Source: Colletotrichum lupini
Lineage: Eukaryota; Ascomycota; Sordariomycetes; Glomerellales; Glomerellaceae
Reading direction: 5' to 3'
DNA: 64,000 nucleotides
NCBI RefSeq assembly: GCF_023278565.1
Contig: NC_064676.1
Location: forward strand, 4,402,001-4,466,000
Shown here: piece by piece, positions 27,372-30,005 of the stretch
Layout of the letters: the number at the start of each line of letters is the position of its first letter
Numbering within the stretch: the first letter of the stretch is position 1
Notes under the pieces: generated by a model
What the model saw: only the letters and a program-made list of their open reading frames with translations
What the model was told of the DNA's origin: nothing
Databases searched by the model: none
Made by a program: the position numbers and the translations under genes

Positions 27372-30005
27372 ATGCCAGCAGGTCTCACTACCTCTTCAAT
27401 TAATTTCTCCATCACTAGTAAACATCATGCATCAACAAGTTCTCCGCAGCAGCATCGTCGCACGTTCAAATCCGACCCTCACGGCAACAGCCATAGACCC
27501 CAACCACACACTCCCAACAGACCTCAGTCCAGAAGTCGACGGCCAGGCACAGCACACTCTTTGGAATCCCCGTCCTCATCTTCAGGCGACCCCACTAACC
27601 CATTTGTTCAAGGGAAGATACCGCCATCATCAACGTGGGTAGAGGCTGACTAAAAGGCCAACCATCACCAGCTAACACACAAAGCAGACCTACAGTCCTC
27701 GGGCAGTGCTAGGTCCACCAGAACCAGGAACTTCATTCACAGGTTCATGGACATAAGGGGGAAGCCCACTCACAAGGCAATACAGTCCCGCCCTCTGCGA
27801 TACCCAATTGCCCAGCCCGTCACAAACCACCCTCTTGAGCCAGCCGCCCCAAATCCGCCACCTGACTTGGAACTTGAGCTTTCTTCGGCGCCCCAGTACA
27901 CACCCTGGGGACGACTAGATTGGAACCAACTCTCTGATAAACAAAGGGTCCACACGGTCGAAAAGGCAGCAGCAGCCAGAATCTACCTGGAGACCTACTT
28001 CGAGGATGCTTTGAGTAGTCGTCCCACACCACGTGAACAGCGTATCGCCGAGCACCAACGAAATCTGGATCAGTATGGAGGTCACCTCGGCCCCAGTGAG
28101 AGAGACTATTACTGGAGGCTCTTCTTTGCAATGGAGACCAATTTCCTCCGCGAGCAAAGAAACGCCAAAACTCACAGCTGCAGAGTTGCATAGTCAACAA
28201 CGTCTAGCGCTGAAACGAGGCGAGGATCGGACTTGGAAAACCTCGAGACCCTGCAAATCCTCGGAAAAGGGAGCTTCGGAGTTGTCAAGCTTGTATGGGA
28301 CCGATGCCGACGACAGGTATTTGCTATGAAGGTCATTCGGAAGTCTGACATGATTCGAAGCTGCCAAGAAGGGCACTTGCGAGCGGAAAGAGACTTTTTG
28401 GCAGCCTCTGAGAATTCAGAATGGTGAGAAAAGTCCTCTCGATGTGCTGGGCAACGCTGTTCTTCCATGCTAACCGGGGCTAGGGTGGTGCCCCTGATAT
28501 CCAGTTTCCAGGATCCAGTGAATCTTTACCTCCTAATGGACTACATGCCGGGGGGAGACTTTCTTGGTCTTCTGATTCGCGAAAACATCTTGACCGAGTC
28601 CAGAACTCGATTCTACATCGCCGAGATGATACTTTGCGTCGAAGAGGCCCATAGACTTGGATGCATCCACCGAGATGTCAAACCAGACAACTTCCTCATC
28701 GGCGCCGACGGTCACCTGAAAATCTCGGATTTCGGGCTGGCTTTTGACGACCATTGGTCCCATGACACCTCCTACTACAAGTGGCAGCGACAGTCAATTC
28801 TGGCCCTGACAGGTGTTACGCTAGACGGTGATGGCGAGGATCAAAAAGCCGCCCGCGATGGTGGACGGGCGAGGCGACGATCATCTCGGGAAGGGTCGCC
28901 CAAGCACTATCCCCCGTCAGAATTGCTCCGAACCAAGTTTGATGGGCTTGAATGTCCGTTCAATGTCGTCGAAACAAACGCAGACGAGATTGTAAAAGTC
29001 GACCAGCTGCTTGGTTGGCGAACAGCAGAGACACGCCGATCCTTGGCCCGCTCCATTGTTGGCACAAGCCAGTATATGGCTCCAGAGGTGGTCATGGGAG
29101 AGAAGTATGATGGTAGATGCGACTAGTGGAGTATCGGAATCATCCTTTACGAGTGCCTATATGGGCACACGCCGTTTCTCTCGGAGAAAGGTCGTCACTA
29201 TACCAAGCAGAACATCCTCGTAAGTTTGGACAGAACTTCCCATTGTAGATTTCTCTGATTTTGAGAGCAGGAATATCGGAAAAGCTTGGTGTTTCCTATC
29301 GACGGACCTCCAGTCTCGAGAGTATGCCGGCAATTGATCAACGATCTGCTTCAGGACAAAGACAGCCGTCTCTCATCACCCGAGTATCGCAACCAAGATG
29401 CTCGACGAAGTTGGGAGAAGCTTCAGGGCTATAAGAAAATACCGAGTCAATACGTTTTCAATAACGACGCATCCGAGATCAAGGCCCACCCGTGGTTTCG
29501 GGGCGTTCCTTGGGAAGCAATACGCTCCAGTCGGCCAGAGTGGATACCACATATTCAAAGCTACGCCGACTCTCACTACTTTGAAGAAGATGAGCCGATC
29601 AGCGACTGGTCTGACTCAATGGATTCCGAGATAGTGGAGGGGTCGGAGAACCTGGACGATCTCCGTCTTAGGTTTCTACAGTACGACTTTGAAGACGATG
29701 TGAGGTGTCTGGCCACTGAGTTCATCTCCAAACCCTATGATTCATCCAAGTTGAAACGATTCGATCGCGATATTGACGATCATGCCTTTCTGGAAGACGT
29801 TGAAAAGGCCTTTCTCAAATGGTACGTCAGAAGAGTCGGACGAAGAGAATGCAAGCGCCCAAGAGACAAGTTACTGCGGGACCGTTGGGTCAAGGAGGAT
29901 GTTCTTCAGATGAGGAAGCGAACAGCTTTTCTAGGTTATTCGTGGCGACGCAAAGACATGGCCAGCCGCAGGCCTGTTGGAACAGTCTACCCTACAAATT
30001 CTTGA
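27372..30005 (+). CDS. PUK1-like NDR/AGC protein kinase interrupted by two TAG codons
   Basis: Exons proposed: 27372-27638 (weakest; donor GTAGAG), 27696-28423, 28484-29219, 29271-30005, giving 822 codons in one frame. Kinase landmarks are all present: glycine loop GKGSFGVV, Lys in FAMKVIRK, HRDVKPDN, DFG, a long activation-segment insert, GTSQYMAPEV, YECLYGHTP, and an NDR-like hydrophobic tail RTAFLGYSWRR. Upstream, YYWRLFFAMETNFLREQR resembles the NDR N-terminal regulatory region. Two TAG codons break the frame, at 28191-28193 (codon 255) and 29124-29126 (codon 546). The second reads Cys-Asp-stop-Trp-Ser where kinases of this group have Asp-Trp-Trp-Ser. Everything else, including splice sites, is intact. 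Known biology: PUK1 of Fusarium carries tandem UAG codons in its kinase domain that A-to-I editing converts to UGG in perithecia. Alternatives are a recent pseudogene or light RIP (both TAGs also fit CpA/TpG transitions). The N-terminal start is uncertain. Confidence 0.75.
28185..28198 (+). promoter_or_regulatory. putative RNA hairpin presenting the upstream TAG
   Basis: GTTG (28185-28188) pairs perfectly with CAAC (28195-28198), leaving the 6-base loop CAUAGU with the TAG adenosine at 28192, again preceded by U. Same layout as the downstream site. A 4-bp stem is short and could be chance. Confidence 0.35.
29116..29135 (+). promoter_or_regulatory. putative RNA hairpin presenting the kinase-domain TAG
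   Basis: GATGC (29116-29120) can pair with GTATC (29131-29135) in RNA (one G-U pair), leaving a 10-base loop that contains the TAG adenosine at 29125, preceded by U. Fungal A-to-I sites favour a U at -1 and hairpin loops. Drawn by eye; stability not computed. Confidence 0.4.

What the first reader, a model, noticed from the sequence alone, without database searches (positions are those of the whole stretch)
29116..29135. Kinase-domain TAG at an invariant Trp position, in a hairpin loop: candidate A-to-I edited stop codon in a PUK1-like kinase
Seen: the frame reads Cys-Asp-TAG-Trp-Ser-Ile-Gly at kinase subdomain IX (29121-29138), with the whole kinase intact before and after it, including a spliced C-terminal exon and NDR-like tail. 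UAG to UGG would give Asp-Trp-Trp-Ser. The adenosine (29125) is preceded by U and lies in the loop of a 5-bp stem GAUGC/GUAUC. Known: Sordariomycetes edit A to I in mRNAs during sexual development without ADARs, preferring U at -1 and hairpin loops; PUK1 of Fusarium graminearum has tandem UAG codons in its kinase domain that are edited to UGG. Inference: this is the orthologue, with one of the two tandem stops present as UGG in the genome.
Basis: partly seen in the sequence, partly recalled or inferred. Interest (0 to 1): 0.92.

Follow-up and report, generated by a model that had tools for sequence, protein, structure and literature searches.

The report
Sexual-stage kinase gene with two stops
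A fungal kinase gene that in related fungi becomes fully readable only after its messenger RNA is edited during sexual development is found here in a Colletotrichum, with the known kind of stop codon inside the kinase domain and a second one before it.

Summary
The TAG at 29124-29126 is real and in frame, at the first Trp of kinase subdomain IX (GAC TAG TGG), its A in a predicted hairpin loop. The gene (27427-30005, four exons) is a PUK1/STK-21-like NDR kinase from a Colletotrichum of the acutatum complex. N. crassa NCU03242 is published with the same UAG-UGG arrangement, edited in perithecia. No RNA was available: editing is not shown here.

In 23 of 26 Colletotrichum gene models this place is skipped or lies before the start; 3 read through it with Trp at or near the site.

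Subdomain IX (DWWS) is missing from the gene models of 88 of 108 Sordariomycetes and 0 of 30 Leotiomycetes, a class where editing has not been found. The frame behind both stops stays conserved. The genome encodes a DUF726 protein with the Met-Val that marks editing-competent Ame1. Hairpin position is weak evidence: 25 of 70 UA sites of this gene share it.

The parts
27427..27634 (+). exon 1 of the kinase gene (start MHQQVLRSS)
   Evidence: start and junction follow the Colletotrichum models
27635..27687 (+). intron 1 (GTGGGT...CAG)
   Evidence: only this junction continues the frame as in relatives, QHLQSSGSA
27688..28423 (+). exon 2: N-terminal region, second stop, start of kinase domain
   Evidence: relatives' models disturbed here
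28424..28483 (+). intron 2
   Evidence: GT-AG, frame kept as in relatives
28484..29219 (+). exon 3: most of the kinase domain
29116..29135 (+). predicted hairpin, 5-bp stem GAUGC/GUAUC and 10-nt loop
29124..29126 (+). in-frame TAG, codon 529, at the first Trp of subdomain IX DWWS
29220..29270 (+). intron 3
   Evidence: GT-AG, frame kept
29271..30005 (+). exon 4: end of kinase domain and NDR-like tail, TGA stop

Best explanation
The gene is the Colletotrichum counterpart of PUK1/STK-21, an NDR-family kinase used late in sexual development. Its DNA carries two in-frame UAG codons, both at Trp positions: the known one in subdomain IX and a second between the N-terminal region and the kinase domain. 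Shown here: both stops in an otherwise open and conserved frame; relatives' gene models disturbed at the same two places; a gene for an Ame1-like DUF726 protein with the editing-specific Met-Val in the same genome. Inferred: in perithecia the tRNA deaminase Tad2-Tad3 with Ame1 turns the A of each UAG into inosine, read as G, so that both codons are translated as Trp and a full-length kinase appears only then; elsewhere translation ends at codon 238.
For: Same UAG-UGG arrangement published as edited in N. crassa (PMC4817773 passages). DWWS in 30 of 30 Leotiomycetes, 2 of 26 Colletotrichum, 18 of 82 other Sordariomycetes and 5 of 5 unnamed models; subdomains V, VI and VII in 143 of 143, so the loss is local. 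At the second stop 17 of 26 Colletotrichum models are spliced or broken, 6 begin after it or lack the N-terminal segment, 3 read Trp at or near it. Only two stops before the end, both TAG. Protein identity stays high after each stop. No RIP-like dinucleotide bias in the gene. Ame1-like gene with Met-Val.
Against: No RNA data. No DNA of relatives: a stop behind each disturbed model is inferred. P0010 (LOW QUALITY) and P0070 do read DWWS. The second site has a weaker context (A at -2, C at +3, both depleted; rules), its Trp rests on 3 models and the linker cannot be aligned outside the genus. Loop placement is not special (25 of 70). Colletotrichum lupini, a close relative, is called asexual (PMC11645255), so the site may never be edited in this species.
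Confidence: 0.65

Rival explanations
1. Editing at subdomain IX only. The upstream UAG is avoided by another route, such as an alternatively spliced intron around it or a translation start after it, and only the kinase part is made.
For: Several relatives' models splice out or start after the site; relatives C. paranaense and C. lupini have a Met (AEMRRGSD) just after it. FgBUD14 is described as both edited and alternatively spliced at its stop (PMC11156358).
Against: Boundaries differ between sister species with nearly the same protein, which looks like annotation artefact; some implied introns are only some 9-30 nt; the conserved LREQR segment would be lost in part of the models; the window has Thr in place of that Met.
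Confidence: 0.17
2. Recent pseudogene: the lineage no longer uses sex and the gene is decaying, the subdomain IX stop inherited and the upstream stop a further lesion.
For: C. lupini is described as asexual (PMC11645255); two stops in one gene.
Against: No other stop or frameshift in 805 codons; catalytic motifs present; identity after the stops comparable to that between them in near relatives (C. paranaense 269/273 against 263/267); the disturbed places are shared across several species complexes.
Confidence: 0.12
3. Ribosomal readthrough or a suppressor tRNA reads the UAGs without editing.
For: None specific to this locus; tRNA genes were not searched.
Against: Neither UAG-UGG nor UAG-UCA is a strong readthrough context as far as I recall; two successive events would be needed; the known relatives use editing.
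Confidence: 0.03

Closest known systems
N. crassa NCU03242 (STK-21)
   Same: Kinase with UAG directly before UGG in the kinase domain, at the first of the two positions; published as edited in perithecia (PMC4817773 passages)
   Different: No second, upstream UAG is mentioned in the passages I saw; its sequence was not compared here
F. graminearum PUK1 (FGRRES_01058)
   Same: Subdomain IX stop hidden by a false predicted intron; deletion affects late sexual stages (PMC4817773)
   Different: Two tandem UAGs there; here one UAG before a genomic UGG, plus one far upstream
CHE1, AMD1, FgAMA1 and other premature-stop-correction genes of F. graminearum
   Same: UAG edited to a Trp codon; false introns or late starts in automatic models (PMC11169179 passages; PMC11156358)
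   Different: Other gene families; CHE1 is edited in hyphae
COT1/CBK1-like NDR kinase of the same genome (C3:815446-815848)
   Same: NDR kinase with CDWWS at subdomain IX
   Different: Reads GAT TGG TGG TCC, no stop at the site

Membership tests
PUK1/STK-21 kinase | NDR-type kinase domain with inserted segment and C-terminal tail | tested here: met
   Pfam PF00069; CBK1 best PDB match in domain and tail
PUK1/STK-21 kinase | distinct from the COT1/CBK1 orthologue of the genome | tested here: met
   another locus, C3:815669-815848, matches CBK1 at 67%; the window gene is the weakest of 16 matches listed, 45% over 44 residues
PUK1/STK-21 kinase | orthology by tree or by direct comparison with named PUK1 or STK-21 | not tested
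   no named sequence at hand and no tree built; Fusarium relatives P0061, P0064, P0140 share the gap at subdomain IX
Premature-stop-correction (PSC) editing site | UAG in frame, U at -1, where relatives have Trp | tested here: met
   29124: CBK1 and Leotiomycetes have Trp; 28191: Trp in C. chlorophyti, and nearby in C. truncatum and C. karsti
Premature-stop-correction (PSC) editing site | A in a hairpin loop beyond chance | tested here: inconclusive
   both in loops, but so are 25 of 70 UA sites of the gene
Premature-stop-correction (PSC) editing site | conserved open frame after the stop | tested here: met
   protein-level identities per piece; dN/dS could not be computed without relatives' DNA
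Premature-stop-correction (PSC) editing site | A/G mixture in sexual-stage RNA only | not testable with these tools
   no RNA reads
Tad2-Tad3-Ame1 editing system | DUF726 protein with Met-Val at the Tad3 contact | tested here: met
   C1 gene, Met-Val 30 and 29 residues before the GYS serine, one off the published spacing; 36 of 120 relatives MV, 59 KN
Tad2-Tad3-Ame1 editing system | Tad2 and Tad3 | not tested
   not searched

The most novel reading that the evidence does not exclude
In Colletotrichum this kinase sits behind a two-site gate: two UAGs 291 codons apart must both be edited in one mRNA before a kinase is made. The gate is kept across several species complexes of a genus seldom seen in its sexual state, including species held to be asexual. 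That would point to hidden sex, to editing outside sex, or to a use for the silenced form.
Probability: 0.45. Interest if true: 0.68.

Novelty: new member of a known kind. Interest (0 to 1): 0.5.

Why it matters
It extends PUK1-type stop correction, documented in Fusarium and Neurospora, to Colletotrichum on genomic evidence. It gives a class contrast: the subdomain IX gap is common in Sordariomycete gene models and absent in the Leotiomycete models seen, where editing has not been found. It would explain why automatic models of this kinase look wrong in most Colletotrichum genomes seen. Since some of these species are held to be asexual, a conserved frame behind two stops is a testable sign of cryptic sex or of editing outside sex.

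Tried and rejected
A start at 27372 with an earlier guess of intron 1 broke the frame and was dropped for the relatives' MHQQV start. The folding control still used that earlier guess for the first junction (27638/27698), which lies far from both sites; its codon counts cover exons 2-4 only. Repeat-induced mutation of the gene was rejected: TpA/ApT is 0.58 in the gene and 1.57 in the AT island at 42-50 kb, although Trp to TAG would fit its context. A TAG within a DUF726 match on C6 lies just before the exon, at an intron border. The TGA in L007 was not examined. Of 7 other single stops between long same-frame ORFs in the window, one (27651) is in intron 1, one (33050) was looked at by eye and taken for a composition effect, and five were not examined. 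Rfam gave no match at gathering scores. Searches pairing Colletotrichum with editing terms (6 of 6 listed, 12 of 266 listed, 8 of 8 listed) showed, in titles and abstract starts, no paper on editing in Colletotrichum; only the open-access library was searched and those papers were not read. The species is not settled: 63.44 Mb in 12 contigs fits sizes given for C. lupini (54.5-63.4 Mb) or C. filicis (62.96 Mb) in PMC11645255, but the protein differs from C. lupini model P0002 by about 7 residues in the parts aligned.

Full report
What is there. The window holds a four-exon gene on the plus strand: 27427-27634, 27688-28423, 28484-29219 and 29271-30005. Start and first junction follow the relatives' MHQQVLRSS N-terminus. 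The joined frame has 805 codons with stops only at codon 238 (TAG, 28191-28193), codon 529 (TAG, 29124-29126) and the end (TGA). Pfam finds a protein kinase domain (PF00069, 3.2e-51); the closest solved structures are yeast CBK1 and then human STK38, with the tail matched too. Glycine loop, HRDVKPDN, SDFG and APE motifs are in the sequence. The TAG at 29124 stands where CBK1 reads the first Trp of CDWWS.

Host. The best 18 hits are all Colletotrichum, the acutatum complex first: C. paranaense 90% identity over the whole query, C. lupini 98% over 53% of it. The assembly is 63.44 Mb in 12 contigs. The species is not settled. PMC11645255 (passages) calls C. lupini asexual but does not rule out rare sex.

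The known precedent. Liu et al. 2016 (PMC4817773, passages and section 4) report tandem UAGs in subdomain IX of F. graminearum PUK1, edited to UGG in perithecia; N. crassa NCU03242 has UAG-UGG, edited at the UAG; F. verticillioides has UGG-UAG; M. oryzae and Claviceps paspali have no stop there. The window has the N. crassa form. puk1 deletion mutants were normal in growth and plant infection and defective in late sexual stages. The editor is Tad2-Tad3 with the cofactor Ame1 (PMC11087585, passages and section 17; review PMC11156358, parts 1 and 2 of 3).

Comparative test at 29125. I took the 143 kinase proteins listed by two searches (each lists its best 120, of 2527 and 3555 hits; they stand for clusters at 90% identity). 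DWWS is present in 30 of 30 Leotiomycetes, 2 of 26 Colletotrichum, 18 of 82 other Sordariomycetes and 5 of 5 unnamed (classes assigned by me from genus names). Fisher's test of 20 of 108 against 30 of 30 gives 2.4e-17, but the sequences are related, so this is no true probability. The gap is local: subdomains V, VI and VII are in 143 of 143, and 81 of the 88 Sordariomycete models without DWWS keep both subdomain VI and the KRPRDKLLRD tail motif. Subdomain VIII is lost in many of the same models (10 of 26 Colletotrichum and 55 of 82 others keep it), as expected if a false intron covers the stop. False introns, late starts and early stops are described as the signs of an edited stop in CHE1 models (PMC11169179, passages). 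That each gap hides a stop is my inference; the DNA of relatives could not be read.

The second stop. Codon 238 lies between the conserved N-terminal segment (METNFLREQRNAK) and the kinase domain. Of 26 Colletotrichum models, 17 are spliced or broken at or around this place (P0001-P0012, P0014-P0017, P0021), 6 begin after it or lack the N-terminal segment (P0020, P0022, P0023, P0032, P0058, P0070), and 3 read through with Trp at or near the site: C. chlorophyti SCKVAW against window SCRVA-stop, C. truncatum SSWATRT, C. karsti ASWSTKP (classed by eye). The three models named LOW QUALITY (C. lupini, C. tofieldiae, C. cereale) stop at SCR and resume at STTS or STPS, dropping the window's VA-stop. 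Sister species with nearly the same protein have different boundaries, which speaks for an artefact around a stop and against a real intron. Outside Colletotrichum the linker is not alignable by eye, so the Trp claim rests on few sequences, only one of them without a gap.

Chance and context. From the sense codons of exons 2-4 there are 308 single-base routes to a stop, 85 of them transitions; 17 are Trp to TAG. Around 29125 the context is C U [A] G U G G, with preferred bases at -2, -1, +1, +3 and +4; around 28192 it is A U [A] G U C A, preferred only at -1, +1 and +4 (rules in PMC9600606 section 6). In any UAG the -1 and +1 bases come for free. Both A's fall in hairpin loops in the 61-nt fold that paper uses, but so do 25 of 70 UA sites of this gene, so the loop argument adds little.

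Is the gene decaying? Identities before, between and after the stops are 126/127, 263/267 and 269/273 to C. paranaense, and 70/166, 193/277 and 152/275 to C. chlorophyti (best BLASTP alignment per piece). To C. lupini the last piece is less alike (240/253, partly a model-edge effect; 236/240 in the alignment) than the first two (156/157, 225/227). In the more distant species the last piece lies between the first and the second. Codon-position G+C is similar in the three pieces. TpA/ApT is 0.58 in the gene and 1.57 in the AT island. This favours a maintained gene but cannot show that the present species still uses it.

Machinery. The genome has five DUF726 matches at three loci. The gene on C1 has Met-Val where PMC11087585 places residues needed for Tad3 contact, one residue off the published spacing to the serine; the loci on C7 and C6 have RN and QD there. 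Among 120 listed relatives (of 2631 hits) 36 have MV, 59 KN, 19 KS, 5 others and 1 could not be read; all 16 rows named Colletotrichum have MV. Tad2 and Tad3 were not searched.

Neighbours. An FKBP-type gene with an NPL domain lies just upstream on the same strand (25626-26554), and an Exo_endo_phos gene downstream on the other (30277-31860). The Stachybotrys model P0034 joins NPL, FKBP_C and this kinase in the same order, so the FKBP-kinase neighbourhood appears shared with that hypocrealean genus.

Verdict. The editing interpretation is the best one and matches a published case, so this is a new member of a known kind. The new points are the second, distant UAG, which makes one edit insufficient, and the class-wide pattern in gene models. 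Neither proves editing; perithecial RNA would.

Noticed in passing
window 42001-50500 and 62001-64000: AT-rich islands (G+C about 0.29 and 0.22) with TpA/ApT 1.57 and 1.41 and low CpA+TpG, as repeat-induced mutation leaves them.
   Followed up: partly
hit lists: All 7 Claviceps models lack DWWS although C. paspali is published as having no stop there; gain or loss of the stop may vary within the genus.
   Followed up: no
window 25626-26554 and Stachybotrys P0034: An NPL-FKBP gene lies just upstream; in one Stachybotrys model it is fused with this kinase, suggesting conserved gene order.
   Followed up: partly
window 28218-28220: C. paranaense and C. lupini models have Met (AEMRRGSD) just after the second stop where the window has Thr; a late start codon may exist in relatives but not here.
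   Followed up: no
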